A stretch of DNA of 64,000 bases from Tetrapyrgos nigripes. Lineage: Eukaryota > Basidiomycota > Agaricomycetes > Agaricales > Campanellaceae. The stretch lies in contig JAACJM010000007.1 of NCBI GenBank assembly GCA_013368315.1, forward strand, positions 1-64,000, read 5' to 3'. Numbering within the stretch: position 1 is the first letter of the stretch; the number at the start of each line of letters is the position of its first letter. The position numbers were made by a program, and so were the translations under genes. The notes beneath the pieces were generated by a model. That model made no database searches and was not told the origin of the DNA. It worked only from the letters and a program-made list of their open reading frames with translations. Shown one piece after another: positions 8,291 to 30,504 of this stretch.

Positions 8291-10013
8291 TAATAGGTGT
8301 CCTTTGTGTAAGTGTAGAAGAAACACAAACTTAAAGACTTTTATACAAATTGTAAAGTGCGAGTGTTCTGAGTAGTCAGAATACTCAACAGTTCACTTGT
8401 ACTACAAGGACTTTTGGGGTTTTTGGTAAAGTTTTGCACGAGTGCACACAAGTTAAACACACACAAAGACTATAACAAGTCCACAAAGGTATAAACCAAC
8501 AGTTTCAATTTCATAATTTGTAGGCCCAAATGCCTTATAACCAATTTCACAAGTCTGAGGACACACACAAAAGGTAACACACAAAACCAATAAATTTGAT
8601 TCAACACTATTGATTCCAACACACTATGTTTATACTCGATGTGAGTGAGGTAGATTTTGTAGAAGCATAGTCTGTGTTTCGCAGTCTCTACAGCTAGCAC
8701 TAGCAAGGTGACTGATACTCTACAGTACGTGGCTTGAGTAACTACAAGAAATACCTAGTCCTTTTATACTACTCACAGCTACTACTATACAGTTCTACAT
8801 TTCTTTTTAATGTCTGCTAAAAGGTACCTAAGAAAAACAGAAATATTAGTCTAATTGCCAGTCCATGTTTGTCTGTACTACTAGATTAAGTAGGTACTTT
8901 CTAATTAGGGTATCTATGAAATGTAGAATATTATCTAAAACTAATAGGGCTTTCTATGTTCCCTTCGCTTCATCCTCTTGACTAAGAGTACCTTCCTGAA
9001 ACTGGCGGCTGTAGTCATTCTGACTCACATAGCTCCACCATCCATGCTGGGCTCCACTTTTATGACTCACATTCCTTTACTGCCAATCAATTGTTATAGG
9101 TTTGCATAGTCCTTGCTTATTCCTCCTCTTATGTTTTTCTGGCACTACTATAGGCTTGGTGTTTATAGACCTTGTTGCTAGTATACCGCCAGTTAGTTCT
9201 TATAGATAAGTCCTGCTCTCTATAAGGTCCTACATATCTTTTGTAGTCGCGCTTGTACCAATGAGAATGCCTCAGTCATCAGGCACACATCTTGCTGATC
9301 TTACTGCTGCATTCAGAAATAGCTTTACCCTTTTGGGGGCTCTCTCATTATGACTCCTTCCTTAGTTTGCGTACTGGCGGTAATGAACTACAGGCTTTAT
9401 TCCTTCACCACTAGTTCATCCCTTTAGTGCATTGTGAAAGCTGAGCTTTCTAGGAACTCGTACATATATACTTTGTCCTACTTTTCTATCCTTACTGCCT
9501 TTAAAAAGACTATTCCTTCTATTTTGCTTACAAGCAAGGTATCGCTTGTTATACCACTAGTTCGGACATAGTCGGTTACTAGGGCTTTCCTCTGATTTCT
9601 CCAATTATGGCACCATTTCTAAACCAGTGATCATTTAGTGCTAGAGTCTGGGTCATATAGCCTATGTGTTCCTTGCCCATGAATAGGGGCTTCACTTTCC
9701 CTTGAATTGTACTGGCAGTACTAAGCGTGTTATAGTAGGAATGGTTACAAAGTCCTTATAGAACTTTGTATAGTATATGGTGGATCTGCTACTATAACTG
9801 AAGCACTGTACACATCAACCATAGTACTTAGAATAAGCATATCCTATTCATAAGTACTTAGTTTTATTGTACTGGCGCATACACTTATTCCACTAACACT
9901 TTAACTAGCAGTTCGGGACTCACTCTAGTTCTTTTATATACCAATTGAAGTGGTGAATCAGCTTTCTAACCGCCAATTAGTGTTTCTATATGTGAATTTT
10001 GTACAGCGTATCA
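8291..10013 (-). repeat. 3' LTR of element B (1723 bp)
   Basis: On the minus strand it runs from TGATACGCTG to ACACCTATTA. It aligns along its whole length with the solo LTR at 32938-34607, and its last 161 bp (+ strand order) with 30344-30504. The termini are TGATA and TATTA rather than the canonical TG..CA. The LTR is unusually long and contains many copies of the ACYRCYAGT word. Confidence 0.9.
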
Positions 10014-10051
10014 TCTCCCCCCAACTAAAGATCTTGACTGTCCTCAGTCAA
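10014..10051 (-). promoter_or_regulatory. polypurine tract next to 3' LTR, with hairpin
   Basis: On the minus strand GGGGGGAGA directly precedes the 3' LTR start, the expected site for plus-strand priming of reverse transcription. Just inside lies a perfect hairpin, TTGACTG / CAGTCAA, with a 4-nt loop (10034-10051). The same arrangement is repeated at 13860. Confidence 0.75.
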
Positions 10052-10587
10052 TAGCTTTTATTGGTAATCCTGCCAAATGTGTATGTCTTTGACACTTCTT
10101 ATTTAGGCAGGTTCCCACAGCCCGGATAACTCTGACCATTCTTATGTTGTTGTAGCTTCCAAATCTGGGAGTGCCAGAGTCTGGCATGATGTCTGATTTC
10201 CACCGACTTCTTTCATCAACCCTTTTTAAGGCATACCCATTCTTCTTCACTTGATATTCTGGAAAAGAAGTGCTCTCCAGGAGAACCTGTTTGAGTCACC
10301 GCTATTCTTGACAGGGTCTAATGTCGTAAACTGCCAAACTTGTCCATCTTCTTCCCATGTTTTCGCTTCTAGCGCCCATATAACTTTAAGTGCCAGTCGC
10401 ACGCCATCCTAATATGGTCTTCAGGGTCAGTGCCAGTTAGATCTGGGGTGAGCCACTCCGTCCTGCAAGATTTCTTGGAATGGAGAGAACGACATAAAGA
10501 TGACCACCAAAAACGTCTAAGTCCATATTTCCTGTCATTTTTCCCCCACTTTGCTCACTGTGCCTTCTACTGAGCTCACTGTCGCCA
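10052..10587. other. non-coding stretch upstream of antisense gene 1
   Basis: There is no convincing ORF. The sequence has repeated GTGCCAGT-type words and is AT-moderate. It is the 5' flank of the + strand gene beginning at 10588 and may hold its promoter, though I see no clear TATA box. Confidence 0.5.
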
Positions 10588-13859: not shown

Positions 13860-13896
13860 TCTCCCCCCAACTAAAAATTTCATCATCCTGATGAAA
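13860..13896 (-). promoter_or_regulatory. second polypurine-tract/hairpin block in element B
   Basis: TCTCCCCCCAACTAAAAAT repeats, almost letter for letter, the sequence at 10014-10030. It is again followed by a perfect hairpin, here TTTCATCA / TGATGAAA with a 3-nt loop. The stem sequences of the two copies differ while the fold is kept. It could act as a central polypurine tract, or as a 5' element of the antisense genes. Both copies lie upstream of a + strand gene. Confidence 0.55.
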
Positions 13897-13941
13897 CTGT
13901 ATCATCAGGTACCTTCACAGTAGGACTGCCAGAATTTCAAG

Positions 13942-13949
13942 TATAAAAG
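13942..13949 (+). promoter_or_regulatory. TATA box of antisense gene 2
   Basis: TATAAAAG lies 71 bp upstream of the ATG at 14020. The spacing is suitable for a transcript start in the pyrimidine-rich stretch between them. Confidence 0.55.
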
Positions 13950-14019
13950 ACCTAAGGATTTCACTGTTCTTAAACCAGAACAAAACCTTTCATTTGGTCT
14001 TTTCACTATCTCTTACTCT

Positions 14020-15367
14020 ATGTCTGCCGCCACTCCTACATCTACCTTCGATGCTGACACCTGGATGGCTAAAGTATCTGAGGCTCATGACAACACTGCT
14101 GCTGTAGGTGGCATGAAGAACCCAGGGGCCTTAATGGTCACTGCTCTTCAGTCCTATGGCGACACTTTGGTTCATACTGGCACTCTTAGTCTAAGTGAAT
14201 TTCACTAACTAGTGGTTTCTCCTAGTCCAACCATTTCGACATCAAGGAGTTCTGCAAGAACAATTCCTGTGTTAGCGCCTACTTGCATCATGCTGAAAGC
14301 ATCAAAACATATGTCGACCAGTACCAGATTGACAAGAACAAGCTGCACTGCCTTGACAAGATTACCAACTTTGCCGATGCCCTTCTAAAGGCGTGTCAAG
14401 GCAGTCGTCCTCCTGTTGAACCAGGTATGATTCGTATTGGCAAGGGCAAGTGTAAGGTTCGTCGATTGACCGCTAGTACTTCTCATTATGTTTACTCATT
14501 CGACCTTCTTAGCGCATCATTTCTGCTCCCATTGTTGAAGACAGTGAGTCAGAGGTCGAGATTGTCACTGAGCCCACGGACGATGTTGTGGTATGTTTTC
14601 CTGCTAGCTTTAACCTTCTGAGTTTTTACCTACTAATGCTTACTTTACCGCCAGATGAAAGAAGCTGGGCTTGCTGCTTCAGCTCACGCTCCAAGCCAGA
14701 CTCCTAAGAGCTTGAAAGATTTCCCCAAAATCGCCAATTCGTGTCAGAAGACTCCTGCCAGTGTTACTGGTTGTTCTCGTGGCGTCATCACTTGTGCCAC
14801 CACTGTATGTCTTCATTATTCCTTGGTCGAGGGCATAGATACCTCATCTAGAGAGTACCTCAAAGCTGACTACTATCTTCATAAGACAGAGGCTAACCGC
14901 CAGGAAGAAGTTGCTCATAGCAAGAAGATGCGAACCTTTACTGGTTCAGTGAACAACTTCAACCCACCTACTGAGGGTAAGTTCACATTCCTTCCATTTT
15001 CCTTCTAACTTTTTACTGACTTTATTACACAGAACCCATCGAGACACCAGAGGATCTGTTGCACAAGACCAACATTGGGACCTTCCTGGAATACCAGAAA
15101 CTTCCTGAAGAGTCTCTCAACATGCTTCAGAACTTCCTTTGCAATGAGCTGCTTTCTGTGGGTCACCAGATGCATTTCGTTGCTAGCCACTATCGTGGTG
15201 CCTACAACAATCTCGTGTCCGTGATCAATGCCAAATTGGCACATACTGAACTCGAGGAGAAAGATGCTACTGCCAAAGAGGCCCTTAATGGCTTGTCTCC
15301 TAATGGTAAAAACAGATCCGGCTCTGTTATTCCAGTCAAGACCTTAGCATCCTCTTCTGCTAATTAG
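14020..15367 (+). pseudogene. antisense gene 2 of element B, about 5-6 exons, unknown function
   Basis: The start is MSAATPTSTFDADTWMAKV. Readable introns include a short one ending at about 14226, about 14453-14513, about 14591-14654 (GTATGT..CCAG) and 14985-15033 (GTAAGT..CACAG). The protein has a helical N-terminal half (FDIKEFCKNNSCVSAYLHHA), an acidic patch (EDSESEVEIVTEP), a cysteine-bearing middle, and a helical end (LPEESLNMLQNFLCNELL) finishing ASSSAN. The last exons read cleanly with no stop. The first intron junction is off by one base, so it may be slightly damaged. No domain is recognised. A TATA box is present. It lies antisense to the host retroelement. Confidence 0.65.
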
Positions 15368-15524
15368 TACTAAATTTGTATGTTGATTGTACGTAGACAG
15401 TTGAACTGTTCTTGTAGACTTGTCTACATTCCTTAGTACTTATGCAATTTTAAAAGTCATCATTTGTGTTCATACCATCTTTCGTCTACCAGCCCATTTG
15501 TTTCTTAGTGGTGCGGAGTTAACT

Positions 15525-16031
15525 GCCAAAACACAGGTCTGACTTTATTAGATCTGAGATCTCATGCTTTACTTCTGAAGGCTTTAAAAGATTTGGGTTT
15601 TTGTAGCTCTTATTACTCTTTTCATTCTGTCAAAGGTGTTATGGCCTGCTGCGTGTACTGCACCCTTGACCATTGGTCTCATTTTCTCCTTTGTCCTTCT
15701 TACCGTAAAGAGGTCAAGATTAAGGGATGGTCTCATAATCTGGCGTTGAAATGAACTCTCAGTGATACTGTCTTATATGTTGAGCATCACCCTTGGTTCA
15801 AATACGACATTCGATTGGCAGCTAGGACAACTCATAGTCGCAAAGTGATGAAGTCTATGAGCCACTTGTAAGTTTATTCGTTTTCTTTCTGGCGTCGTAC
15901 ACTGCTTCACCCTTTTTGGCTTATGCAGTCCTCGCACCAAAAACTTCACTTCCAGAGAGTCCGAGTACTTGTTCTTTTTGGATACGCCCTGGACTCCAAA
16001 CCTGCTGCCTGGATATTCAGTTAGCCAGTAA
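15525..16031 (+). pseudogene. antisense gene 3 of element B, partial
   Basis: The open frame LDLRSHALLLKALKDLGF continues through a cysteine cluster (MACCVYCTLDHWSHFLLC) to MKSMSH. A GTAAGT..GCAG intron follows (about 15869-15928). The second exon starts FPRTKNFTSRESEYLFF and ends SVSQ with TAA at 16029. One internal TGA lies near 15752. No initiating ATG can be assigned. The Cys/His spacing could bind zinc, but that is inference. The coherent reading across a spliced intron argues for a real ancestral gene, the third on this strand. Confidence 0.45.
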
Positions 16032-16346
16032 GCACTTGGTTATTTTCCATCACTCATACATTGCTAAGTTTTGCCGCTAGAGGCACTCGTCATACCTAAA
16101 TCCTACTCTCTTGTCGACACATAAGTTTTTATGCTAGTTCATTACGACCTTGTACTGACCACTAGCCTTCTCTAGTAGTAGTACCTTTGTTAACTAGATA
16201 TGAAATGAAGAGTAACCGCTAGTTTGTTAACCATATGTGTTTACTGCATTAAGCTTATCTGCTCCACTGATTTGATCTGTTGTCATGTTCTAGTTTTGGC
16301 GGTAAGCTGCCAGTATATGGGTACGGATCTATGTTGTAGAACATAG

Positions 16347-16434
16347 GCAAGTTTGGTGTAGTGGTAACACTGTGGAGATAATTGGATTTAATCCTTTACC
16401 CCCGCTGTCCTTGGTTCAAATCCTCAAACTTGTG
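16347..16434 (+). ncRNA. tRNA-like sequence with boxes A and B
   Basis: GCAAGTT pairs fully with AACTTGT (one G-T) as a 7-bp acceptor stem. GTGT/ACAC forms the D stem around AGTGGTA. Box A TGGTGTAGTGG and box B GGTTCAAATCC fit Pol III internal promoters. At 88 nt it would need an intron of about 15-17 nt. The T stem pairs only partly, and no anticodon loop with U33 can be assigned. It is therefore a decayed or intron-bearing tRNA, or a tRNA-derived SINE head, and not a confident functional tRNA. Confidence 0.5.
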
Positions 16435-16559: not shown

Positions 16560-17117
16560 TTAGATCTGGTGCAAGGACTGCCAGTCTCCCAGATCTCCTT
16601 CGTCTTCTGTACCACTGATCTCAACTAACTCATTGTTAGAATCGTATTGCAGAGTTCTCAAGTTAGGCATGAAATCAAAGATGTAGTCCTTGCTGGGTGT
16701 CCATGACTCTTCTGGCACTTCTTCATTGTCCATCATTTTTCGGAGCTGTTCAGCATCCAAATCAATAAGTTCATGAATGTTAGGGGGTAGTTCAATGGGT
16801 TCATATCTCGCCTGATGAGGTAGGACTCTGAACACTGCCACTTTTTCTCGTAGCACCGTTCCATCCATTTCCACCATTATGTAGGCTCCACCTCTGGTAC
16901 ATCTAATAACAATCATAGGCCCTAAGTACCTAGGGTACATCTTTTTGTCTAGACTTTTCTCTATATGAGTGTTACAGACTTGAACTAGCGTTCCTGGTTT
17001 AAAGTCCCAATTCTTGATCACACTTCTATACTTCTTTTTGAAGCGTTTCAGCTCCGCTCTTTTCTGTTCATTTACTCTTCTAATCATGTCTTCTACATGA
17101 ATATGGTGTTTTGCCAA
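16560..17117 (-). pseudogene. integrase C-terminal region of element B
   Basis: The region carries a basic helical segment (RRVNEQKRAELKRFKKK), then an SH3-like GPMIVIRCTRGGAYIMVEMDG core typical of gypsy integrase C-termini. An acidic tail of about 90 residues ends SLHQI. It is separated from the catalytic integrase ORF by a short gap with a frame change near 17120-17170. No chromodomain is seen, unlike element C. It probably contributes to DNA binding and target choice. Confidence 0.75.
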
Positions 17118-17174
17118 CGCTTGGGCTCTAACCCACCAATTCTTCTGTAGTGAGAATCCTGTCCAGTAGTTTAA

Positions 17175-18392
17175 CTAACCAAGTAGACTTGACAATGTCG
17201 ACCCTAATGCTATGAAATACGGCGAACAGCCTAAGCCCTTTCTGGGTGTAACTCTATCAGCCAATAGAACTGGTTTCAAGAACCAAAACCATTTAGATAG
17301 GTCACTGCCAGTTGCTTTAACTAGCGCTTGCCTTATGTCAAGGTGAGCCTGTTCGATTATGCCATTAGCTTGAGAATTGTATGCAGAGATAGTAATACCT
17401 CTAATGCCATACTTATCTTCTAGCCATTGAAGTATTGCCTTCATCTGAGGAGTGTTGTCTGTAACAACTTCTTCAGGGACTCCCCATCTGCATATAATAT
17501 CTTCAAAGAACCATTCAGCTATGGCTCTGGCAGTATCATGCTTTAGCGCACGTCCTTCTGACCATCTTGATAAGGCACAATGACAACCATTGCTGGCTGG
17601 AGATACTTTAAAGACGTCTACATGTACTTTCTGGAATAAGAATGGCATATGCGTTAAAGTTGGCAGTATCTTTGGTAGTCTCAACTGGTGGGCTTGACAT
17701 TCCACACAAGTCAACATGAACCATTGAACATCCCTTTCCATGTCTGGCCACCAAAAACACTTAGCTATTATAGCTTCAGTCGCATAGACCCCTTTATGGC
17801 CTAGGTGATCATGTGCTAAATGCATCATGAACATCCTCCTTTCCTTTGGTACATACAGAAGGTGTTGACTGTGCATTTCTGCATTTTTACGATACAACCT
17901 GCCTTCTCCATCTATAAAGAACTGCTTAGCCTTCTTTATAATTTTCCTCTTTCTTTTAGCGGTCAGCTTTCTCAGACTTGCTTCTGGCGGTTCATTCAAG
18001 TATTCTTTTACTAGCAGTATCATAGAATCCAAATCTTTAGCTTCTATAGATCTATGATTCTCACAATAAGGATGACTTTCTGTCCACTCAGCACTATCTG
18101 GCAGTGCTACAAAGACTTGTGAAATTTGACTATAAACCATTTTGGCGGTCTCACTTTCAATCATCATAACTCCTACAGATTCTGCCAGTCTTTGTCTAAC
18201 TTTTGTTAACACTCTTTCTTTGTCTAGAACTTCTTGTATATCATCTTGGAGATCTTCTATCCCTATGGCCACACTATTCAAGTAGCCACCCCTATGGTCA
18301 ATAAGGTGTTTGAAATCCTCAAAGTCTAGCGGCACTTCTGTCTTGTCTGGACCCATTCTAAAACGCAAAGGTACTCCATTGTCCTCATCCAT
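17175..18392 (-). CDS. integrase of element B (zinc-binding and catalytic domains)
   Basis: This 405-codon open frame has an HHCC zinc domain (HDHLGHKG...CVEC) near residues 190-235. The catalytic core has aspartates in HVDVFKVSP and VTDNTPQ and glutamate in GIIEQAH, the DDE triad. The usual NGP after TDN is TPQ here. The upstream 150 residues form a linker after RNase H. It would insert the cDNA, apparently making 4-bp duplications. A start codon is probably not used, since it should be part of the Pol polyprotein. Confidence 0.85.
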   Translation of the reverse strand: MDEDNGVPLRFRMGPDKTEVPLDFEDFKHLIDHRGGYLNSVAIGIEDLQDDIQEVLDKERVLTKVRQRLAESVGVMMIESETAKMVYSQISQVFVALPDSAEWTESHPYCENHRSIEAKDLDSMILLVKEYLNEPPEASLRKLTAKRKRKIIKKAKQFFIDGEGRLYRKNAEMHSQHLLYVPKERRMFMMHLAHDHLGHKGVYATEAIIAKCFWWPDMERDVQWFMLTCVECQAHQLRLPKILPTLTHMPFLFQKVHVDVFKVSPASNGCHCALSRWSEGRALKHDTARAIAEWFFEDIICRWGVPEEVVTDNTPQMKAILQWLEDKYGIRGITISAYNSQANGIIEQAHLDIRQALVKATGSDLSKWFWFLKPVLLADRVTPRKGLGCSPYFIALGSTLSSLLG

Positions 18393-18419
18393 TTCATCTT
18401 CTTTGACTTTTGGTTGGGC

Positions 18420-19723
18420 TCAGTGTATTTCTGAACATTCTGAAGAAGGTCTCCTTGACAAACCATCCGCTAGTATATGAGTTTTCCCTTTCACATGTAC
18501 AAGTTCAAACTGGTATTTTCTTATATCTTTGATCCAGCAATTGATAGTCGCATTTGGACCTAAACTTGGATTATCCAGCATCCCTTTTATGTAACTGGTG
18601 TCCGTGAAGACAGTAAGATCCCTACAACCATAAGTATAATAGAAAGAGTCTTCTAGCACTAGTTTAAGGCTGTATAGCTCTCTCTTTGGTTGTGAGAATC
18701 GTGCTTCCCAATCATTTAGACACACAGATCCAAAGTAGAGATAATTCTTCTTCTTAGGATCCAGCTCATCTTCTTGAAAGAGATAGGATGTATCTACCGA
18801 TAGGCAAATTCCTTTTGCATGATCATACTTAACAGCTTTTAGTGGTGCTATTGTAATTGCCACTTTGACTTTGTCAAATGCAGTCTGTTCTACATTAGTC
18901 CACTGCCAAGGCACGTTTTTAGTAAGATTGTACAAAGGTCCAGCAATCTCCGCATAATCCTTCACATATACTCTCAAGATCCCAGCTGTGCCCAGGAAAC
19001 TTCTAAGTTCAGATAGATCCTTAGGTTCTGGCCACTGCCTAATCAATTCTACTGTTTTCTCGTCAGGTTCTCGACCTTCATAAGTACACTTTTGGCCCAC
19101 TATTGTCACTTCAGGGTTGCAAATAAATGTTTTCTTTCCTGAGAAAGTGCCGCTAGCATACTTCATTCTCTGAACTATTCTGTTCACATTTTGAAGGTGT
19201 TCCCAAACAAAAACGCATATGCCTGGATTTTCAGGAATAGTCTCATAACCACCATCAGCCGTTTCATATCGTGATGCAGGTCCTTTTAGCAGTACATTAT
19301 CTATGTATGGAATAGTGACTTGTGGCATTTCTTCCTTCAAAATATAAGTGACATCATCATGAAAAATGGGCACTGAGTTAGTCCAACCCATAGGTAGTTT
19401 TACTAACCTATGTAGACCAAAAGGTGTTTGGAAGACTCGTCTATGTATCCATGGTTGTACCCAACAAAGATATCTAGCGTCCCCAGGCAAGCTTTACCCA
19501 TAAATTCTCTGGCAATGTCAGCAGTTGCTGGCGGTACTCCAGAATGTTGAATTGTCACTTTATTTAGAGGTTCAAGACTATGCACAATCCTGACTCTGCC
19601 ATCTTTCTTGAGTACACAAAACCATTTGCCTCTATAGCTTCCATTACACGGCTCGTAAGTGCCTACTGCTATCTTTTCTTTTATAAGCTCACAGATTTCC
19701 TCATACTTCCCTTTTCCACCCAA
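18420..19723 (-). pseudogene. reverse transcriptase-RNase H of element B
   Basis: Two overlapping frames (19403-19723 and 18420-19490) together give the RT fingers (YRGKWFCVLKKDGRVRIVHS), palm, FQTPFGLHRLVKLPMGW, and the active site YIDN near 19300 where gypsy RTs have YIDD. The connection and RNase H follow (SVDTSYL, VFTDTSYIKG, HILADGLSRRP). The frame break at about 19450 and the D to N change at the second catalytic aspartate would abolish polymerase activity of this copy. Confidence 0.85.
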
Positions 19724-20310
19724 GGAATGTGTGGGGTCACCACTAGTTTAATCAGTGGGAAGAATTCAACTTTGAAGTTCCCAGCCTCTTCTGTTTTCCA
19801 CGCGAAACCAGGTTCTTGCAACTTCATTAGCATGTGCAACAGTTTCCTTTCTTTTGGCAAAAGAAAACCTTCAGGATGGTTTTGATCAATTATTTCCTTC
19901 CTTTCTTGAGTGTAGCGTTCGCCAGGAGTGAATTCTGGCAGGTTAGTAGGTAACTCAGGCATGTCCTTTAACAGATCACCAGTTATGATCCTAGTAATCC
20001 TGAATTCTGGCAGTAACTCTGTTTTAACTGGTTTTACTTTATTTGCTACTGACTTGTATTTACCAAACACACTTTCTGTTTCTTCACCCTGATCACCACT
20101 AGTTTGTGCTCCCTCTGGATCGCAGTTCAGAGACGATGCTTGAGCTGTGAACATATTGGTGTTAACCACTGTAGGGTTTTTAGAATGTTTTTGAGCTTTA
20201 TACTGTTGTAGTAATTGGCTCGCCTTCTTATCTTTCTCTTTAATCCCATTGTAAGAAGCAAACACATATGCTTCACTAATTTCATCTTTAGTGAAACCTC
20301 TGTCTCTCAC
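19681..20310 (-). pseudogene. element B pol segment between protease and RT
   Basis: The 209-codon frame contains AYVFASYNGIKEKDKKASQLL and LPEFTPGERYTQERKEIID, the entry block seen just before RT fingers in this gypsy lineage. It overlaps the RT frame by 43 bp in another frame, a probable decay frameshift. No catalytic residues lie here. Confidence 0.6.
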
Positions 20311-20609
20311 TACAGTGAATCCGCTAATTACGATTTCGTCCTTATCGTTTATTTCAAAGGAAAGGGCTACCTCTCCCTGTAATTCTAACAGTTCATCAAG
20401 GACCCTTGAAAATTTGTAGCTTCAGGGTTCGCTTCCTTGTTTTCTTCTCCATGTTTTTCATCCTTTACACCTTCATCTTCTTCAGCAGATATGGGGACTT
20501 CATTACTCATGTCCTTATCTACAAACCGCTTTGCTGGAGGAGGCAAAACACCTGGTCTCTGTCCTCTAGCATATGTTGGAATTGTACATCTCTGGCCTGA
20601 GTTAGGATC

Positions 20610-21073
20610 TCAGAGTGTAATGAACTGATTCCCATTTTTGGTATTGTTCACTGCCGTTTCACACAATACATTGAATGGTCTTCCTATGAGCACTTGATAC
20701 AGACACTCGTCCATGATATGTACTTGTAAATAGACCTTTATGTCACCAAACTTGAAAGGCACATTCCTAGCTAATCCTCTAGTAGGGGTGATAGTGCCAT
20801 TCACACTTTCCATATGAACAACTAAGTCTGGATCCCAGGCTAGTTGTAAACCAGCTGCTATGCTAGTATTCATCAACACTATCTGTGATCCGTTAGCTGA
20901 CCAGATCCATTGATAACAGGATAAGTGACTCTGAGTTCATCTGATGGTCTAGCTGCTATAACAATCTTCTTGTCTCTTTCCTCTGGTCTGTGTTTCAAGA
21001 ATTGTTCCACTGAGTCTCTATGTACAATCAAATTTGGCAGTAATCTGCCTCTACCTTGAACAAAGATGTCCAT
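20610..21073 (-). pseudogene. element B protease-like region
   Basis: Two adjoining frames (20879-21073 and 20610-20879) hold NTSIAAGLQLAWDPDL, FKFGDIKVYLQVHIMDECLYQVLIGRPFNVL. The VLIGRPF block is the C-terminal ILG-like motif of retroviral-type proteases. The catalytic D-S/T-G motif should fall near the break at about 20880 (LMNTSIAAG) and looks degraded. The frame change by a stop near 20880 indicates decay. Confidence 0.55.
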
Positions 21074-21182
21074 TGCAGGCTGCTCTAGATCTTCTAAGGT
21101 GAAATATACTTCCTCCTCTTCAGACTCTAAATTTCCTCCTACAACCGCTTGTTTATGGGTTTGAACAGGCCTTCACTGTACT

Positions 21183-21659
21183 CTAGGTTTCACATTCAAG
21201 ATGTTCATCCTTCTTTTCAACAGTCTTTTCACTGCTGGGGCAATCACCACTACTTCCATTGTTTGTAAGGAAATTTCTCCTCGCATAATCTTGTCCACCA
21301 CTCTCTTCAACACCAGTTAACAACATTGGTTCCCTAGAGTCCACTACACCTTCTAAGAAAGGGTGCATCTTTTGTTTCTCCTTGGGAGGTACTCTGGCAG
21401 TTGTAGACTTTTCGACAGGTTTTGGCATTTCAGATATGTTGGGACCAGCCAACTTTTCTTGATTAACGGGTATATTCCTGTCAAATGGTCTACTGCCAGT
21501 TGTACTTTTATTGGCGATACTTTCTTCCATGCTCGAACTCTTTTCTGGTGGTAAATCTGCTGTTTCTGAGCCTTCATCATTTCTTTTCTGAGGAGGGACA
21601 TAAGTTCCATTCTTTCCTCCTTGTTTCAGAATTGTAGGTACTGTAGATACCTCTACCAC
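21183..21659 (-). pseudogene. element B gag-pol linker ORF
   Basis: This is 158 codons rich in Pro, Lys, Glu and Thr (NGTYVPPQKRNDEGSETADLPPEKSS) with no domain. It lies between gag and protease in the expected order. It may be a spacer of the polyprotein. Breaks on both sides are consistent with frame decay. Confidence 0.5.
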
Positions 21660-21888
21660 TGGCTTTAATCAAGTAGCTTGCTCCTCAAGGGCCTTTTCTT
21701 TTCAGGTTACAAACTATGATGTTGTATCATCCTGCCTGGACCCTATCCTCAGAGCTCTTAGTTTCCCAACACTAGTTGTTCCAATGATTTTCTAATGAGA
21801 CTCATCTCATCTTTTCTCTGCGACTCCACCATTTCCTGCTTTTCTTCTAGATCATGATGACGTTGATCTAGTGAAGACATCATGGTGT

Positions 21889-23183
21889 TTATTTTACCCA
21901 TGAAGGTACTGAAATTGCATCTTTCATTTCTTCTATGGAAGCAAACATTACTTTCTTCTTATCCCAACCCTTCTCTTTAGTGATCTTTTCAATCTTCTGA
22001 GCCTTTGATTCAGTGTCTCCTTCAAAGCTCTGAGGGATAAAGCTGCCATCTCTAAGGCGTACTTTTCCTTGTTCATTTCTGATGAGCCACTTCTTATCAA
22101 AGTACTCTTGTTGAATGTCACAATCTGGCGCCATATGATCTGGGCTATTGCAGAAGAAACACTTCCTTCTGCTAGTTGCCTGATTCGAGTTCAACCCTAA
22201 ATGCGGTGGATTTGAGTATCCTGTGTTAGAGGAATACCCTCGATTGTTATTGAAACTCCCACTGTTAGAGTTAGGCCTAGATCTGCCAGTTTGTTGATTC
22301 ATCATTAACTTGGCTAAGCTAGCTAAGATCGTAGTATTCTGTTCGATCTTCTTGGCCAAGTCTTTCACCCTCCATTATTGACATCGCTAGAGGCTGCCAT
22401 TTTCATCATCCATTCGTCTGGGGAATTTTCTTCTTTAACTGGCAGTGATCGAGATTCGATCATCCTCTCTCTTACTGGTTTACCAGTAGAGGTTTTGCCA
22501 GTGTTCAGACTGACCCCAAGACTCATCAATGCTGCTACATGATTGTTACAAGCGCTTTTGGCAGCTTGCATCATAACTTCTAGTGGGAACGGATCCTCTA
22601 CATTGTCTACTTCATCGTCTATTTCGGGTAAGAAAGAGATCATAGCTCTCCACAATTCTACGTCCAGCACACTCATGAAGTATTCTACAGCTTGTTGATT
22701 TGAAATTGTAACCCGCTCCTTCTGCATGAGCTTCTTTGCTTCAAGCTTAAATTCCCTTATATATGCCAGAAGACGTTTGCGCTGTAGGCTTGTAATCCCT
22801 TCATTTCTGGCGGCTATGGCTTTTAGCTTGTTAACACTTCTGTTAACACCACCAACTGATTCTGGGTAACACTTCTTCAGCTTTTTCTTGAAAGCATCCC
22901 AACTTGGACCAGCTTCGATAGCATCCTCCTCATGACATCTGCAGGTCTTATACTCCATATACTTCATCGCCAGAAGGATCTTGGACTGCTCTAAATCTAT
23001 AGACAAGTCTTGACAGAGTCCCTCTATCTCATCAAAGTATCTCTCTAAGTTCTCCGGCTCTTCTTTGTCAAAGCAAGGTGCCATCTTTTTGGCTTTTGGT
23101 AGCTTATCATTTTGCGTAGCTCTCAAAGCTTCTGGGCTTACTTCAAGCCCAGGAATGCTTGTTTTAACTCGTTCATCTGCCAT
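21889..23183 (-). pseudogene. gag: gag of element B
   Basis: MADERVKTSIPGLEVSPEA opens a 272-codon frame. It carries a gag capsid-like core (APCFDKEEPENLERYFDEIE, then FKKKLKKCYPE) and a long helical half. An overlapping second frame (21889-22368) carries the zinc knuckle CFFCNSPDHMAPDC and ends VPSWVK. The 4-bp overlap between the two frames could be a decay frameshift. Upstream of the ATG the region to 23440 is serine/threonine-rich and partly open. It ends abruptly at the C insertion. Confidence 0.8.
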
Positions 23184-23440
23184 TGTTTCTGTTCTAGGTG
23201 TACTAGATGTTTGTTGTGATTCAAAAAGATTCTCGAAAGGTATATCAAGTTCTTCATCTAAAGGTGAGAGTAAAGATGACTCAATCGATGGAGCTCTATT
23301 GGCGCCAGTTGAAGTAGATGGTTCCTCTATTTCTTCTGTGGTTTCAGAAGTCTGAGAAGTTTTCTTCTTCTTAGGTTTACTGCTAGTTCTCTTTTTAGCA
23401 ACTGTTCTCTTTTGTTCTCTCTCCCAGGGTTTGAGAGGGC

Positions 23441-23886
23441 TGTCATGACATCTATATTTGGTACTATTTATTTCTTCTTATCTCTGTATCCTCAGATCTT
23501 TACACCATTTGACTCTCGTTCCACATGCTACACACCGGACCTTTCATTTCTCTGATACAGCTTCGATACAGCTTCTTGACAGCTTCCTTTACAGCTTCCT
23601 TTACAGCTTTCTTTACAGCTTTACTTTTACATATATAAACCCTGCCCTGACACCTGGTTCCCCATCTTGACCTCTTCATCGTTGGGACCAGGTGTGTGTT
23701 CCCCTTTTCATTACTTCTTTCACCTTTACTGATGGGCACTGTAGTTCCAGTACTTACTGCTGTCTGTTAGGTATTTAATACATTCTTTGTCATTGGGACC
23801 AGTTCCAGTACTTACTGCTGTCTGTTAGTCAATTCGAGCCTGTAGCTCCTCGTTATCGCTATCTAAGTGCTTGCCTCTTTGTGACA
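23441..23886 (+). repeat. 5' LTR of element C (446 bp)
   Basis: Starts TGTCATGACATC and ends TTTGTGACA. It contains four to five tandem TTTACAGCTTCC-like 11-12-bp units (23560-23625), a TATATAAACC box at about 23630, and a downstream duplication of CCAGTACTTACTGCTGTC (about 23750 and 23808). Confidence 0.95.
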
Positions 23887-23963
23887 TTAGGTCAAGATCC
23901 CTTACTGCACTGGTGGCCTCTGTATAGGTCGCCCTTGCAGGTGATACTGTCACCACATCTGGA

Positions 23964-25631
23964 TGATACGCCGCACCATCCTCAGTCTCTGATTCATCTG
24001 TCTCTGCATCTCCCCCACTGTCTCCGACACCACTGCTCTGTGTAGATTGGCTACACAGTCTTGACTTAACAGATCAGAAGCACGTCAGCTTTGAAAACAG
24101 AGAAGAACTCTACAACAACTGCCAGCAACAGCCTTGCCCCCACGCTCATCACTCCATCCCCCAGGTCCGCTACTACTTCTGGGAAGGAGAAAACAGTATA
24201 ATCCTACCCAGCAATCCAGCCCTACTCCACTCCCACTTCCTACGCCTAGCCTTCAGCCACCTGCCATTCTCCGGTCCTGAATCTAGTACTTCCACTGTTC
24301 CATCGCCAGACATCACTCACACCCCACTACCGCTATCTGCTCCACCTTCTGCCATACCAACAGCCCGTTCCAGTCCTACACTTGTACCCAATCCATCCCC
24401 TCTTCCTGTGTCACCAGCCCCACTCAGTCCCATTGCTTCCCCAATCACTGACATTGACATGTCCTCTGCCGCCCTTGAAAATCTCCTCCAGGCTCTGGTC
24501 AACAACCAGAACCAGCTGCAGCAGGCAATCACCAATTTGGTCAATAGACCTATGCACGAATCCTCAGACAAAACTGCCAAACCGGCCCCATTCAAAGGCA
24601 AATCAGCCAAACTCAACTCGTTCTTATCTCTCTTCATTCTCTGGGCTGGAGAACAAAAGTGGCTCAAACTCGACAGTGGGAAACTCAATCCACGGAAGTG
24701 CATTGCAGAAGCACTCCTTATGATGGAAGGACCTGCTGCAGAATGGGCCGCAGAGTATGCTCGTCATATCAGCAGAGTCTGAGCAGACGAAGCCGGAGCA
24801 GTCTTCCCCTGGGAAGGGAACTGGGACAACTTCACCCACACACTAAAGGTTTGGTTCGGGGTAGCAAACGAGCAGCAGCTGGCCAAGAACAAGCTCGAGG
24901 TGTTGAAGCAGGGAGATAAAACAGTTGCGGAGTTCTCTCAGATTTTCAAAATGTGGGCAGAGAAGACTGGGTTCTCGGATCAGGACCTCCAGTACAAGTT
25001 CCGAAAGCGCCTTCATAAGGACCTATTGTTCCCATTAGCAAATGTGGAGCTAGGACAGAAGGAGGCCCCTAAAAACTTAGACGAGCTGATCAGCCGAGCA
25101 CTTCATGTGGAACAGACCCTAGCAGAGTTCGTAGGAAAACCAGTCACTGGCCCTGCCCCATCCCTCTCCAGATTCTCCTCTGCACGAGACCCTAACGCCA
25201 TGGACGTTGACACCTCCCATACCAAGCGTCCCCAGGGTAACAGACGCACCTTTGTGGACTACCAGAAGGCGATGCAGGGGCACTGCTATGGCTGCGGTTC
25301 CAAGGATCACATGAAACGAGATGGGAACCATGGACATGACAAGTGTGACTACTGTGAGAGGATGGGTCATCGCTCTTCCGTCTGTCAGGACTGATACATG
25401 GGTTGACCCAGAGGAGGGGGCCGAAGTAGACAATGCGTGGCTGCCACTGTTAGTGACACCTTTAGTCTCTTCCCCAATGATCCACCCTCTCCTACCCCTG
25501 CCTCTGCCCCCACTGCTACTGTTGCTGCTTCCTCATCCACTGAATCGCTGTCTATGCTCTCTGCCTTGCAACGATCTATCACTGATCAAACTGCCTTACT
25601 CCATAACATCGCTAACCAACAGGGTTTTTGA
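23964..25631 (+). pseudogene. gag: gag of element C
   Basis: The open frame after a TGA at 23964 runs through a proline/serine-rich N-terminus and a glutamine-rich helix (ALENLLQALVNNQNQLQQAI). The capsid core follows (APFKGKSAKLNSFLSLF, then NKLEVLKQGDKTVAEFSQIF). A double-cysteine knuckle (CYGCGSKDHMKRDGN, CDYCERMGHRSSVC) lies at about 25280-25390. TGA codons at 23964, 24780, 25392 and 25404 all stand where CGA is expected. The initiating codon is not evident. The frame ends at TGA 25629 in GGTTTTTGA, and protease continues in +1. Confidence 0.88.
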
Positions 25632-25633
25632 AA

Positions 25634-26455
25634 CGGGTGTCCGTTCCTGCCACGGCACGAACACCCCTGAATACCCATATGCTCTCTTGTTCCTCATACG
25701 ATTCTATTCCCTCATGTACCATATCCAGTATCCTGAAATAGAATCTTGTGCTTCTCACTTCCATATACGTGTGAAACTCCGAGGAAGACGTAATGAGGCA
25801 GTGGTAGTGGCGATGGTTGACAGCGGAGCTACAGGACTGTTCCTGGGACAGTCATTTGTAAACCAGCACCAAATCCAAACCTATCCCCTCTGTAAACCCC
25901 TAGATGTCTACAACATTGATGGGACCCTTAACTGAGCAGTGTCACAAACTGCTACAATTCTTTGTCCTCCTTCTTCTTCTACTTCATTATCAAACCCATT
26001 TTCCAATCACTCATCTATTGCATTTCCTCGATAAACCCTTTTAAACTTTATAAACCTTGTGTTACTGACCTTGAACTTTATAAAACCTGTCAAACCTTAT
26101 AATAACCATCAATCAATCTTCCATCCAATCAATCTTATCTTTCTCCTATCTTTTCCCTACATTTCTCCATTATCTCCTATGTTTCTCCTATCTTGTTCCT
26201 ATCACTTATTCATTGTTTTTCTATATAAACCACTTGACACTCTAGTTAGTTCTTTAGTTTGTTCACTTCATCTCCGCTCCGTACTACTACTACAGAGTGT
26301 AGAGCCTAGTCAGCTTACTCTTTTCCTCTACTTATATCTCTCTTGTTCAATCTATTGTCTTGTATCTGCTTTCTGATTGTGTGACTTGGGTGGTTACTTA
26401 AGTGTATCAGCAACCTTGACAAGCAGGGTGTATAGATTGGTTCTGTCAGCTAGCT
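25634..26455 (+). pseudogene. protease of element C, split by a solo LTR
   Basis: In +1 relative to gag, the frame gives ESCASHFHIRVKLRG, the catalytic VDSGATGLFLGQSF at about 25815-25855, and YNIDGTLN, then TGA 25933. The solo LTR 25940-26421 follows. After it, and in the same frame once one AGCAG copy is removed, the protein continues GCIDWFCQLAMTADGQEAWLD with ILGLPWL at about 26525. Both termini of the inserted LTR are exact. Confidence 0.85.
25940..26421 (+). mobile_element. solo LTR of A family inside element C
   Basis: It starts TGTCACAAACTG and ends CCTTGACA, 482 bp, flanked by a perfect 5-bp duplication AGCAG (25935-25939 and 26422-26426). It shares the TCACTTCATCTCCGCTCCGT block and the tail GTGTGACTTGGGTGGTTA with the other copies. 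A solo LTR implies insertion of a full element followed by LTR-LTR recombination. Confidence 0.95.
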
Positions 26456-28310
26456 ATGACAGCAGATGGACAGGAGGCATGGCTAGATTTTCTGGTTACG
26501 GACTTAGGTGGAGAAGATGTCATCCTGGGTCTTCCCTGGCTGTGTAAGATGAACCCACAGATCGACTGGACAGGCGGCCGGCTGCAAATCCCTGTAGCAC
26601 TGCCCCAATCAGTGGAAGAGGTCCCTGATCAGGATCAGTTCGTTGCTACCAATTTTGGACCAACCCCAAGGGGAAATGTCATCCTGGAAGGCACAGAGTC
26701 TGAACCAACCCAGTCAATTCCTCAGGGAACACATGCACCCATAGACCAACCCCCGGATCTGGCAACAGAAGAGGAGGAGGAGGAACCCCAAGTATATCGC
26801 ATTCGCACTAATCGGGCTACAAGGCGCTCCTGGAAAAAAGCAGGGATCCTTGCTGACACTGGAGAAGAAGTCTGGTGTGCTGCATGGTTCACTTACTCAC
26901 AGCAGCTGGCTGAAGAGGCAAACCAGATGAAACCGAAACAGTCATTTGAGGAGATAGTCCCTCCTCAATATTGGGATTATTCTCAGGTCTTCTCCGAAGC
27001 TGAGTCGGAACGCCTCCCTGCACACAAATCCTGGGATCATGCTATTGAACTGGTACCTGGAGCACCCGCTACCCTACGAACCAAGATCTACCCGATGTCC
27101 ATCAATGAACAGCAGGAACTCGATCAATTCCTTGACGAAAATGTCCACAAGGGATATATCCGACCCTCCAAATCCCCTCTGTCCTCTCCAGTCTTCTTTG
27201 TGAAGAAGAAAGACGGGAAACTTCAGTTTGTTCAGGATTACCAATGCCTAAATGAGTACACTATTAAGAACCGCTACCCTCTTCCCCTCGTTGCCGACAT
27301 AGTCAGCCGCCTTCAAGATGCCAAGTACTTCACCAAGTTTGACATACGTTGGGGTTACAACAATGTCCAGATCAAACAGGGGGATGAGTGGAAGGCAGCA
27401 TTTGCAACCAACCGAGGACTTTTCGAACCTACCATCATGTTCTTCGGATTGACAAACTCGCCAGCTACTTTCCAAGGCCTCATAAACTCCATCTTCTCAG
27501 ACTTGATCGCAGCAGGCAAGGTAGCAGTTTATCTGGACGACATCCTGATCTTCAGTGGGACTCTGGAAGAACACCGAGGAGTGGTTTGGGAAGTGCTAGC
27601 CAGGTTGAAAAGGAATGATCTGTATCTGAGGCCAGAGAAATGCGAGTTTGAACGAGAGGAGATAGAATATCTGGGGCTGATTATCCGGGAGGGGCAAGTT
27701 CGCATGGACCTGGTGAAGGTGGCAGCAGTACAGCACTGGCCAGTTCCCTGCAATGTCTGCAATGTTCAGGTGTTCTTAGGTTTAGCAAATTTCTACCGAC
27801 GATTCATAGAGAACTTTGCTAAAACTGCTCGGCCTCTGAATGACCTCACTCGTAAAGACATCTTGTTTAATTGGGGAACTCACCAACAGGAAGCCTTTGA
27901 CTCCCTTCGAACAGCCTTCACATCTGCGCCCATTCTTACACACTCTGGTCACCAGATCGTCCTACCCAAGTCGAAGTAGACACTTCGGGCTTCGCAACAG
28001 GGGGAGCTCTAATGCAGATGTTGGAAGACAGTCTTTGGCACCCAGTAGCATTCCATTCAGCATCCATGCAGTCAGCCAAACGCAATTACGAAATATATGA
28101 CCGAGAGATGCTGGCTATTATTGAGGCACTGAAAGATTGGCGAAGTTATCTGGAAGGACTACCACAGCCCTTTGAAATTATCACAGATCACTCCAATCTA
28201 GAGTTCTGGTGAACAGCACAGGATCTTAGTCGACGACAAGCAAGATGGGCCCTGTGGCTATCACGCTTTGACTTTCAACTAATCCATCACCCAGGCAAAG
28301 CCTCTCCCGC
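26456..28310 (+). pseudogene. reverse transcriptase-RNase H of element C
   Basis: RT motifs include [44 protein letters not shown] and the intact catalytic YLDDILIF at about 27530. The 507-codon frame closes at 27979 after a 1-base frameshift near 27960. RNase H then continues in another frame (VDTSGFATGGALMQML, NYEIYDREMLAIIEAL, EIITDHSNLEF), with TGA at about 28210 where Arg is expected, then [15 protein letters not shown]. Confidence 0.9.
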
Positions 28311-28379
28311 CTCTCCTCCCACCAAGTAACAGACCGGGAAGACAATCTGGAAACCACATACTCAAACCAGAACACTTTG

Positions 28380-29560
28380 TAAGGCTCACTGCTACTATGC
28401 TGGCCAACCCCCTAGAGGAACAAATTCGTCAGGCACTGGGAAGAGAAGTGGAGGTGTTAAAAGGACTAGAGCAGTTGAAGAAGGAAGGATTGCAACGACT
28501 GGCCAATGGTTTACCTGAATGGGAAGAGGATAATGGATTGGTATACCACAAGGGGTGAGTCTACGTCCCTCCAAATGAAGAGCTGCGGAAGGCAATAGTA
28601 GAACAGTGCCATGATGAATCATCAGCAGGACATCCAGGGCTACATGGAACACTCGATTTGGTAACCTCGCACCTCTGGTGGCCCACCATTTGCTCTTTTG
28701 TAGAGAAGTATGTGGAGGGATGTGATAAATGCACCAGGAAGAAGCTGCAATGTCATCCACAAGCAGTAATCCAACCTTTGGATGTACCCTTAGGACTCTG
28801 GGAAGAAGTTGGAGTTGACCTCATTACACAGCTACCATCCTTGCAAGGCTATGACACAATCCTGGTCTGCACTGACCTCTACAGAAAACAAGTCCATACC
28901 CTTCCCTGCACCTCTAATATCACTGCTACTGAAGTCGCTGACCTATACTACTGAGAAATCTTCTGCCTTCACGGCCTCCCACTTCGCTTTGTATCAGATC
29001 GTGGTCCACAGTTTGCAGTGCAAACCATGCATTCTCTGTTAGACCGACTCGGGATCAAGTCAAGCCTTTCCTCAGACTACCGACCCCAGATGAATGGACA
29101 GACAGAATGAGTCAACCAGGAAGTGGAGAAATATCTGCACCTCTACACCAACTACAGACAGGATGATTGGGTGGAGCACCTTCCTATGGCCAAGTTTGTT
29201 CTGAACTCCCACACACACTCTGCACATGGCATGGCACCTTTTGAGGTGACTTATGGCTACCTTCCTCTATTCAACATACTGGTAGGCTGGCACACAGGCA
29301 TCCCAAATGTAGAAGACCATCTCGAAATCCTAAGACAGGTTCGAAGAGATGCAGGATCAGCACTGCACCTGGCTAAGCGCCAGGAAGGATATGAAAGAGG
29401 GAAACAGAAAGGACATCAATTCAAGGTCGGGGATCATGTCTGGCTGAGTGCAGAAGACATCGACTTGAAACTTTCAAGTGACAAGTTGGGAGATCGGCAA
29501 CTGGGACCATACGAGATTTGGACTATCGGTTAGACCTCCCTGAAACTCTTAATCGCCTGC
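28380..29560 (+). pseudogene. integrase of element C
   Basis: The HHCC zinc domain (ESSAGHPGLHGT...CDKCTRKK) spans about 28615-28745. The catalytic segment has VDLITQLP, CTDLYRKQ, RFVSDRGPQF and MNGQTE. It is broken by TGA at about 28557, 28951 and 29107, each fitting CGA to TGA. The HFKVGDHVWL-like block (QFKVGDHVWLSAEDI) and GPYEI mark the C-terminal GPY/F module. Confidence 0.88.
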
Positions 29561-29845
29561 ACCCAGTATTCCATGTCAACAAGCTCTACCCCTACAAGGG
29601 TAATCTAGTGAACGGACTCTTACCTGAGGAACCAGAGCCAGTATACCTTGAGGGGGAGGATGAGCCTGAGTACGAAGTGGACACCCTTCTGGATAGCAGG
29701 ATACAATGGAGGTGACTGGAATACCTTGTCAAGTGGAAAGGATATGATGACAGTCACAACTCATGGGAGCCAGTCACAAATCTCAAAAATGCGAAGTGTA
29801 AGATCACAGCATTCCACAAGAAACACCCAGAGGCAACAAAGACTT
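29561..29845 (+). pseudogene. chromodomain at the C-terminus of element C integrase
   Basis: After HPVFHVNKLYPYKG and an acidic linker, the sequence EYEVDTLLDSRIQW, a TGA at about 29713, and [19 protein letters not shown] match the chromodomain core of chromoviruses. Chromodomains of this type bind histone marks and steer insertion to heterochromatin. The stop removes it from the polyprotein in this copy. Confidence 0.88.
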
Positions 29846-29871
29846 AAGATTCATCAAGGACAATGAAGTAT

Positions 29872-29881
29872 AGGAGGGGGG
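29872..29881 (+). promoter_or_regulatory. polypurine tract of element C
   Basis: AGGAGGGGGG followed by TAA sits immediately before the 3' LTR, the expected site of plus-strand DNA priming. Confidence 0.8.
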
Positions 29882-29884
29882 TAA

Positions 29885-30343
29885 TGTCATGATGTCTATA
29901 TTTGGTACTATTTATTTCTTCTTATCTCCGTATCCTCAGATCTTTACACCATTTGACTCTCGTTCCACATGCTACGCACCGGACCTTTCATTTCTCCAAT
30001 ACAGCTTCAATACAGCTTCTTGACAGCTTCCTTTACAGCTTCCTTTACAGCTTTCTTTACAGCTTTCTTTTACAGCTTTACTTTTACATATATAAACCCT
30101 GCCCTGACACCTGGTTCCCCATCTTGACCTCTTCGTCGTTGGGACCAGGTGTGTATTCCCCTTTTCATTACTTCTTTCACCTTTACTGATGGGCACTGTA
30201 GTTCCAGTACTTACTGCTGTCTGTTAGGTATTTAATACATTCTTTGTCGTTGGGACCAGTTCCAGTACTTACTGCTGTCTGTTAGTCGAGTCGAGCCAGT
30301 AGCTCCTCGTTATCGCTATCTAAGCACTCACCTCTTTGTGACA
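29885..30343 (+). repeat. 3' LTR of element C (459 bp)
   Basis: It is nearly identical to 23441-23886, with one extra TTTACAGCT unit accounting for the 13-bp length difference. The two LTRs differ at scattered C/T and G/A positions, such as TGACATC versus TGATGTC at the start. Confidence 0.95.
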
Positions 30344-30504
30344 AGTACTTAGTTTTATTGTACTGGCGCATACACTTATTCCACTAATGCTTTAACTAGC
30401 AGTTCGGAACTCACTCTAGTTCTTTTATATACCAATTGAAGTGGTGAATCAGCTTTCTAACCGCCAATTAGTGTTTCTATATGCGAATTTTGTACAGCAT
30501 ATCA
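30344..30504 (-). repeat. truncated 5' LTR of element B (161 bp)
   Basis: AAGTACTTAG to CATATCA matches the last 161 bp (+ strand order) of the B LTR at 8291-10013. The remaining 1.56 kb is missing, replaced by the 3' LTR of element C. Confidence 0.85.

What the first reader, a model, noticed from the sequence alone, without database searches (positions are those of the whole stretch)
8291..30504. About 17-kb Ty3/gypsy-like element (B) with multi-intron genes antisense to it between pol and the 3' LTR
Seen directly: LTR, polypurine tract and gag-pol all read on the minus strand. Yet 10588-13022, 14020-15367 and 15525-16031 read as spliced + strand genes, with GT..AG introns joining coherent frames. 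Introns survive retrotransposition only if they are antisense to the genomic RNA, which is what is found. Antisense extra ORFs are known in some plant LTR elements. I do not know of a fungal gypsy carrying three. This could be a distinct lineage with cargo or regulatory genes.
Basis: partly seen in the sequence, partly recalled or inferred. Interest (0 to 1): 0.88.

Follow-up and report, generated by a model that had tools for sequence, protein, structure and literature searches.

The report
Fungal retrotransposon with antisense gene block
A group of fungal jumping elements carries, on the strand opposite to its normal genes, a conserved set of intron-containing genes plus a tRNA-like gene, which makes it look like a two-way retrotransposon and not a chance insertion.

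Summary
Element B (8291-30504, minus strand) is a Ty3-order LTR element, dead in the window and broken by a nested ~6.9-kb element. Its antisense, intron-containing genes are an inherited part of the lineage. Gene 2 occurs at 41 loci; 32 have this lineage's integrase downstream on the opposite strand, 8 have none within 13 kb, 1 does not fit. Gene 2 introns recur in four subfamilies as little as ~39% alike in protein. Between subfamilies dN/dS is mostly 0.1-0.3 where it can be estimated, up to ~0.5 for the most distant, and changes favour third codon positions of the antisense frame. All database relatives returned for genes 1 and 2 are from Dendrothele bispora.

Antisense genes are known in plant Retand/Grande elements and in Botrytis Boty, so this is a new variant. 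What the proteins and the tRNA-like gene do is inferred; no RNA data were available.

The parts
8291..10013 (-). 3' LTR of element B (1723 bp); sense end begins TGATACGC at 10013
10014..10029 (-). polypurine tract next to the 3' LTR; on the + strand it reads TCTCCCCCCAACTAAA
10588..13486 (+). antisense gene 1: about eight exons read by eye; relatives predicted mostly disordered with a helical N-terminal part (low confidence); stops in this copy
13860..13875 (-). second, exact copy of the polypurine-tract motif, 145 bp upstream of gene 2
13942..13949 (+). TATA-like box of gene 2, also in the three other copies aligned in the right orientation
14020..15367 (+). antisense gene 2: exons 14020-14169, 14226-14456, 14513-14590, 14655-14976, 15033-15367; 371 codons
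15641..16031 (+). antisense gene 3: exons 15641-15867 and 15929-16031; zinc-knuckle-like C-x2-C..GH..C motif in most copies; one stop in this copy
16347..16434 (+). antisense tRNA-like gene between gene 3 and the 3' end of pol
16560..18419 (-). end of pol and integrase (zinc-binding domain above, core domain below the Pfam cut-off)
18420..19493 (-). end of the reverse transcriptase (motifs read by eye) and RNase H
19681..21668 (-). broken part of pol, no Pfam match in the frames tried; assigned by position
21889..23477 (-). gag: CCHC knuckle in 21889-22374, the rest by position
23441..30343 (+). nested element with ~450-bp LTRs and a + strand reverse transcriptase (not part of B)
30343..30504 (-). 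remnant of the 5' LTR of element B

Best explanation
Element B belongs to a Ty3/gypsy lineage of an agaricomycete-like fungus that is 'ambisense'. The 5' LTR drives the genomic RNA with gag and pol. From inside the 3' part of the element, on the other strand, separate Pol II promoters make spliced mRNAs for two to three accessory proteins. SHOWN by sequence: the block is inherited with pol in four subfamilies, it is protein-coding under purifying selection, gene 2 keeps introns at corresponding places, and a tRNA-like gene lies on the antisense strand at the point where the two directions meet. INFERRED: the introns and the tRNA-like fold persist because the sense (genomic) RNA reads them as reverse complements. 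INFERRED: the tRNA-like gene ends or cleaves antisense transcripts (RNase P/Z) or acts as a TFIIIC-type boundary, so that antisense RNA does not cover gag-pol and feed RNA silencing. INFERRED: the repeated polypurine-tract copies serve as extra plus-strand primers, or as a shared promoter motif. INFERRED: the proteins are nuclear or nucleic-acid-binding accessory factors of the life cycle, like plant aORF-3R products and retroviral accessory proteins.
For: Linkage: 41 gene-2 loci (from 95 matches), 32 with this lineage's integrase 0.8-8.6 kb downstream (median 1.9 kb) on the opposite strand, 1 with the nearest upstream on the same strand, 8 with none within 13 kb (from all rows). Coding: gene 2 against five copies of subfamilies 2 and 3, dN 0.22-0.33, dS 1.25-2.19, third-position excess p 1e-11 to 1e-13; close copies give ratios mostly 0.2-0.8, two above 1; integrase, a control, 0.05-0.18 between subfamilies where dS is not saturated. 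Introns: a guide protein from another species recovers the four introns read by eye plus one extra 51-nt skip; the last intron is in 20 of 27 copy models, six others do not reach it and C31 is interrupted. Other species: 6 gene-2-type and 35 gene-1-type proteins returned, all Dendrothele bispora; tags 802206 (gene 1) and 802207 (gene 2) are consecutive, both listed with contig length 116,150. tRNA-like gene: 29 loci at E<=0.00043, 29 of 29 on the gene-2 strand, 13 of them in subfamily 3, not used for the model; covariation score 0.437 against 0.206 shuffled (0 of 500) and 0.06-0.15 slid. Motif: 66 exact genome matches, reversed control 0; 56 of 66 within 16 kb of gene 2, all 56 on its strand.
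Against: No RNA evidence of any kind. Against the most distant subfamily (C4 type) gene 2 gives dN/dS 0.24-0.49 by exon and a weak position signal, p 0.01. The first intron of gene 2 was not recovered in C4, and some copy models place introns in another phase. In gene 3, subfamily 3 has high dN (0.33-0.72) with dS mostly saturated. Gene 3 was not seen in C4, where only about 240 nt separate gene 2 from the tRNA-like gene. No Pfam match in the gene 1-3 pieces tried; PDB tried for a gene-2 relative only, one chance-level hit (E 0.31); AlphaFold models poor (mean pLDDT 44 and 34). 18 of 24 tRNA-like copies have no T-run of four within 90 nt downstream, 2 have one at 80 nt, and the 4 with one within 10 nt are all window-type, so Pol III termination is not evident. 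The tRNA-like gene was not found in fetched pieces of C55, C72, C87, C163, C180, C19:711-715k and C19:766-770k, some of which may not reach the place. The four subfamilies are from one genome, and two of the three database searches scored only a capped candidate list.
Confidence: 0.83

Rival explanations
1. One-off capture: host genes inserted into one copy, or host genes that happened to receive a gypsy insertion, later duplicated with it.
For: Eight of 41 gene-2 loci have no integrase match within 13 kb and one has it only upstream on the same strand.
Against: The same layout at 32 loci in four subfamilies as little as about 39% alike in protein; each of the eight shows another part of the element; multicopy relatives in Dendrothele.
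Confidence: 0.03
2. Antisense non-coding RNA: the antisense strand is transcribed to regulate the sense RNA and the open frames are by-products.
For: Antisense non-coding transcripts are known in some LTR elements (passages of PMC7264820).
Against: dN/dS mostly 0.1-0.3 in gene 2 and third-position excess in the antisense frame; introns at corresponding places; annotated proteins in another species.
Confidence: 0.06
3. The block with its tRNA-like gene is a separate mobile element that entered an ancestor and still moves by itself.
For: Genes and tRNA-like gene form a compact unit; a second gypsy is in fact nested between genes 1 and 2 in five young copies.
Against: Copies sit in one place relative to pol. 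A transposase or terminal repeats of its own were not searched for specifically; no Pfam match was seen in the pieces tried.
Confidence: 0.06
4. The tRNA-like gene is the element's own primer for reverse transcription.
For: Full acceptor, D and T arms are kept in most copies.
Against: The primer-binding site of copy C22 (TGGAGCCCACCGCGAGG after the LTR) does not match the 3' end of its tRNA-like gene. Other subfamilies were not tested.
Confidence: 0.03

Closest known systems
Plant Retand/Tat-type elements with antisense aORF-3R (Retand TRP28, Grande gene23, RIRE2)
   Same: Ty3/gypsy; long pol-to-3'LTR region; conserved antisense genes there; in Grande an own promoter (passages read in PMC7264820 and PMC11963269).
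   Different: Host is a fungus; no Pfam TRP28 match in the pieces tried; three genes with many introns; antisense tRNA-like gene; repeated polypurine-tract motif. The word 'intron' is not in the main text of either paper.
Botrytis Boty/BcGypsy1 with antisense gene brtn
   Same: Fungal gypsy element with an added antisense gene (title of Zhao 2011 seen in reference lists; passages of PMC8365987).
   Different: One gene, an ascomycete; introns, a tRNA-like gene and multi-family conservation are not mentioned in what I saw. The brtn sequence was not compared.
Helenus (TRIMp3) elements
   Same: LTR elements carrying a tRNA-like sequence that is not the primer; fungi including Agaricomycetes (passages of PMC10886601).
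   Different: There the tRNA-like part is in the LTR of short non-autonomous elements; here it is internal, antisense and in a long coding element.
MALAT1/mascRNA-type tRNA-like RNA 3' end formation (recalled, from no call)
   Same: A tRNA-like fold downstream of a Pol II gene could be cut by RNase P/Z.
   Different: Only an analogy; no processing shown.

Membership tests
Ty3/gypsy LTR retrotransposon | Domain order protease, RT, RNase H, integrase in one direction | tested here: met
   Copy C22: gag-asp protease 25.4 bits and RVT_1 17.4 bits (both below Pfam cut-offs), RNase H 45.1 and integrase H2C2 63.7 bits (above), in that order
Ty3/gypsy LTR retrotransposon | Two LTRs, PBS and PPT | tested here: met
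   C22 5' LTR with PBS-like TGGAGCCC and C4 3' LTR with PPT, two copies of one young family; in the window only a 162-bp 5' LTR remnant. Host primer tRNA not identified: 34 genome matches of CTCGCGGTGGGCT, some in the elements themselves, not examined further
[quoted passage not shown]
   32 of 41 gene-2 loci; 29 tRNA-like loci
Antisense aORF-3R element (plant Retand/Grande type) | TRP28 (PF04195) domain | tested here: not met
   No Pfam match in the gene 1-3 pieces, P0001, P0007 or P0010
Boty/brtn | Homologous antisense protein | not tested
   brtn sequence not at hand
Helenus / TRIMp3 | tRNA-like sequence in the LTR of a short non-coding element | tested here: not met
   tRNA-like gene is internal at 16347-16434, LTR at 8291-10013
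tRNA gene | Cloverleaf scored by the Rfam covariance model | tested here: met
   38.3-39.2 bits in six C4-family copies (cut-off 29), 27.8 in the window, just below; the other eight sources gave no Rfam match at E<=0.5
tRNA gene | Usable anticodon arm | tested here: inconclusive
   Anticodon region differs between subfamilies; in subfamily 3 it is a long hairpin
Active retrotransposon lineage | Recent copies | tested here: met
   C4-family segments over the end of pol 96.7-99.9% alike, 6 copies compared; expression not tested

The most novel reading that the evidence does not exclude
An ambisense LTR retrotransposon lineage: a second, spliced transcription programme runs opposite to gag-pol, and an orientation-selective tRNA-like element at the convergence point trims or blocks antisense transcripts (it folds only in the antisense RNA), shielding gag-pol from RNA silencing, while extra polypurine tracts upstream of antisense genes prime plus-strand DNA. 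Introns and the tRNA fold are tolerated only because the genomic RNA reads them backwards.
Probability: 0.3. Interest if true: 0.88.

Novelty: new variant of a known kind. Interest (0 to 1): 0.77.

Why it matters
Conserved antisense genes in plant LTR elements still have no agreed function (passages of PMC7264820 and PMC11963269). Here is an independent fungal case with several genes, purifying selection, introns at corresponding places across subfamilies, a young family of near-identical copies, and relatives in another sequenced fungus. It makes two questions testable: what antisense genes do for a retrotransposon, and how an element with converging transcripts avoids making double-stranded RNA against itself. 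An antisense tRNA-like gene inside a coding LTR element is a concrete candidate for the second. My literature searches listed nothing that describes it (open-licence PMC papers only, judged from listings and the passages named).

Tried and rejected
Host-capture and non-coding antisense readings: rejected by the linkage and codon tests. tRNA-like gene as own primer: not supported for copy C22, the only one tested. Simple Pol III gene: doubtful. Function by fold: AlphaFold models too poor to search, so no fold search was made. NCBIfam gave one hit for P0001 at 16.7 bits against a cut-off of 85, taken as chance. Naming the species: not attempted beyond the Dendrothele relatives; agaricomycete-like is inferred. 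ARAGORN found no tRNA in the window and odd or missing anticodons in some copies; the Rfam model and the purpose-built model were used instead. The first gene-2 splice model was out of frame and was corrected with other copies. A target-site duplication for the window element was looked for and not found exactly.

Rows dropped before counts: dN/dS tables omit pairs under 20 codons (60 for integrase), and codons with a stop in either sequence. One search had used 66 of 95 gene-2 rows and 41 of 56 integrase rows; one search repeats it with all rows and gives the same 32/8/1. The tRNA alignment A3 used 9 copies; C31, C19_85000 and four more C4-family copies seen were left out. The second R1 search was given 25 of the 58 sources, chosen because they had matched. 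The motif table added C22 and C58 gene-2 places by hand. For one search I picked six copies. Spliced models scoring under 80 were not listed.

Full report
WHAT IS THERE. Element B lies on the minus strand: 3' LTR 8291-10013, polypurine tract at 10014, pol from 16560 up, gag up to 23477. Of its 5' LTR 162 bp were found, at 30343-30504; between them and gag sits a nested + strand element (23441-30343) with its own LTRs and a reverse transcriptase. The copy is dead: pol, gene 1 and gene 3 carry in-frame stops.

THE ANTISENSE GENES. Gene 2 (14020-15367) splices into 371 codons without a stop; its introns are 56, 56, 64 and 56 nt, GT-AG. A Dendrothele bispora protein (P0001, 47% identical over 95%), used as guide, gave the same four introns plus a 51-nt in-frame skip; that stretch is missing from P0001 but is conserved in the copies here, so I keep it as coding. 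Gene 1 (10588-~13486) has about eight exons by eye, its inner boundaries provisional; gene 3 (15641-16031) has two and a zinc-knuckle-like motif seen in three subfamilies. A TATA-like box stands 78 bp before the gene-2 start, also in the three other copies aligned in the right orientation.

CONSERVED, NOT A ONE-OFF. Searching the genome with P0001 gave 95 exon-sized matches, which group into 41 loci. In 32 the lineage's integrase lies downstream on the opposite strand (0.8-8.6 kb, median 1.9), in 8 none was found within 13 kb, and in 1 (C19:758k) the nearest is upstream on the same strand. The integrase search listed 56 DNA matches, a lower bound. Each of the eight shows some other part of the element nearby. 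I group the copies by eye into four subfamilies: window type; C365 type; C10/C441 type; and a young C4 type whose segments over the end of pol are 96.7-99.9% alike (6 copies compared). Spliced alignment of gene 2 to the fetched copies gave 27 models. The last intron is in 20; six of the others do not reach it and C31 is interrupted. The second and third introns are found at corresponding places in all four subfamilies, with another phase in some models; the first is not recovered in C4; and a further intron seen in other subfamilies is absent from the window copy. The C4 reading has no stop or frameshift and four introns.

SELECTION. For gene 2 against five representatives of subfamilies 2 and 3, dN is 0.22-0.33 and dS 1.25-2.19, with changes concentrated on third positions of the antisense frame (p 1e-11 to 1e-13); against C4 the signal is weak (dN 0.61, dS 1.47, p 0.01). 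By exon and pair the between-subfamily ratios are mostly 0.1-0.3; dS is saturated in several pairs, and C4-type pairs reach 0.49. Close copies give mostly 0.2-0.8, two above 1, as expected for dead copies. Gene 1 exon 8 gives 0.26-0.38 for the more distant copies and 0.75-0.80 for close ones. Gene 3 exon 1 gives dN 0.22-0.37 against dS 0.98-1.75 for five C365-type copies, C187 (0.68 against 1.30) being an exception; in subfamily 3 dN is 0.33-0.72 with dS mostly saturated. Integrase, the control, gives 0.05-0.18 where dS is not saturated.

OTHER SPECIES. With a gene-2 alignment the protein database gave 6 proteins, all Dendrothele bispora; with the gene-1 part of P0005, 35, also all Dendrothele. 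Both searches scored a capped candidate list. Tags 802206 (gene 1) and 802207 (gene 2) are consecutive and both listed with contig length 116,150; P0005 and P0017 are gene models that fuse gene 1 and gene 2; and P0004, with an RNase H domain joined to gene 2, is listed with the same 15,737-base contig length as P0001 and P0003. That equal contig length means one contig is an inference, and P0004 reads both parts in one direction, so it is a rearranged copy or a faulty gene model.

TRNA-LIKE GENE. Between gene 3 and the end of pol, on the antisense strand, the window has a tRNA-like sequence (16347-16434; Rfam tRNA 27.8 bits, cut-off 29). Six of 14 sources searched, all of the C4 family, score 38-39 bits; the other eight gave no Rfam match at E<=0.5. 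On nine aligned copies of three subfamilies 94.2% of cells pair; the covariation score is 0.437, against 0.206 for shuffles (0 of 500) and 0.06-0.15 when slid; shuffles do not allow for relatedness. A model from these nine, run on 58 fetched sources, finds 29 loci at E<=0.00043 (C81 at 0.076 not counted), all on the gene-2 strand, 13 of them in the subfamily not used for building. There the anticodon arm is replaced by a long hairpin, while acceptor, D and T arms are kept in most copies; C158 lacks the T arm. So the tRNA fold is maintained, but decoding is unlikely. It does not match the primer-binding site of C22. On the minus strand the window stretch scores 12.4 bits against 88 on the plus strand: the fold belongs to antisense RNA.

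REPEATED POLYPURINE MOTIF. The 15-mer CTCCCCCCAACTAAA, the polypurine-tract region read on the antisense strand, occurs 66 times exactly in the genome (reversed control 0); 56 of 66 lie within 16 kb of a gene-2 locus, and all 56 are on its strand. It stands at the 3' LTR, upstream of gene 2 (145 bp in the window, exact copy at 13860-13875), and in three C365-type pieces also just before gene 3, in most places followed by a short dyad (by eye). Extra plus-strand primers or a shared promoter motif are both possible.

HOW IT PROBABLY WORKS. See best explanation; the steps shown and inferred are marked there. The geometry is telling: everything that could be damaged by, or could damage, the genomic RNA (introns, a tRNA fold) sits on the antisense strand.

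RELATION TO KNOWN SYSTEMS. [quoted passage not shown] passages read), and one in Botrytis Boty (seen through citations). tRNA-like sequences are known in LTRs of non-autonomous Helenus elements (PMC10886601; passages read). The combination here - several intron-bearing antisense genes, an internal antisense tRNA-like gene and repeated polypurine motifs in a fungal Ty3 lineage - was not found in the literature searches. I rate it a new variant of a known kind.

LIMITS. One genome plus protein records of one other species; no RNA data; no reverse-transcriptase tree; subfamilies grouped by eye; functions inferred.

Noticed in passing
L070 (C22:298699-301699) and C3, C58, C168, C172: Five young copies share a 100% (rounded) identical 3-kb junction with a second gypsy nested antisense between genes 2 and 1 (motif spacing ~11.5 kb instead of ~3.8 kb), although the four compared differ by 1.4-3.3% over the end of pol: a composite of roughly 23 kb (estimate) seems to have been co-amplified or spread by recombination.
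   Followed up: partly
window 32975-34609: Another LTR of the same family, apparently solo, with a possible 4-bp target-site duplication TCAT.
   Followed up: no
window 2390-4584: GC-rich (68% in 3001-4000) tandem repeat of 22-bp spacing between arms of a 448-bp, 96% inverted repeat.
   Followed up: no
window 52556-53268: 333-bp inverted repeat with 89% complementary arms and a 47-bp spacer.
   Followed up: no
gene 1 copies aligned: Copies differ largely by C/T and G/A changes, many at CG, consistent with methylation decay or RIP-like mutation of dead copies; judged by eye.
   Followed up: no
ends of contigs C58, C168, C172: These contigs end about 2.0 kb past the polypurine motif, close to the outer LTR edge, probably assembly breaks at repeats.
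   Followed up: no
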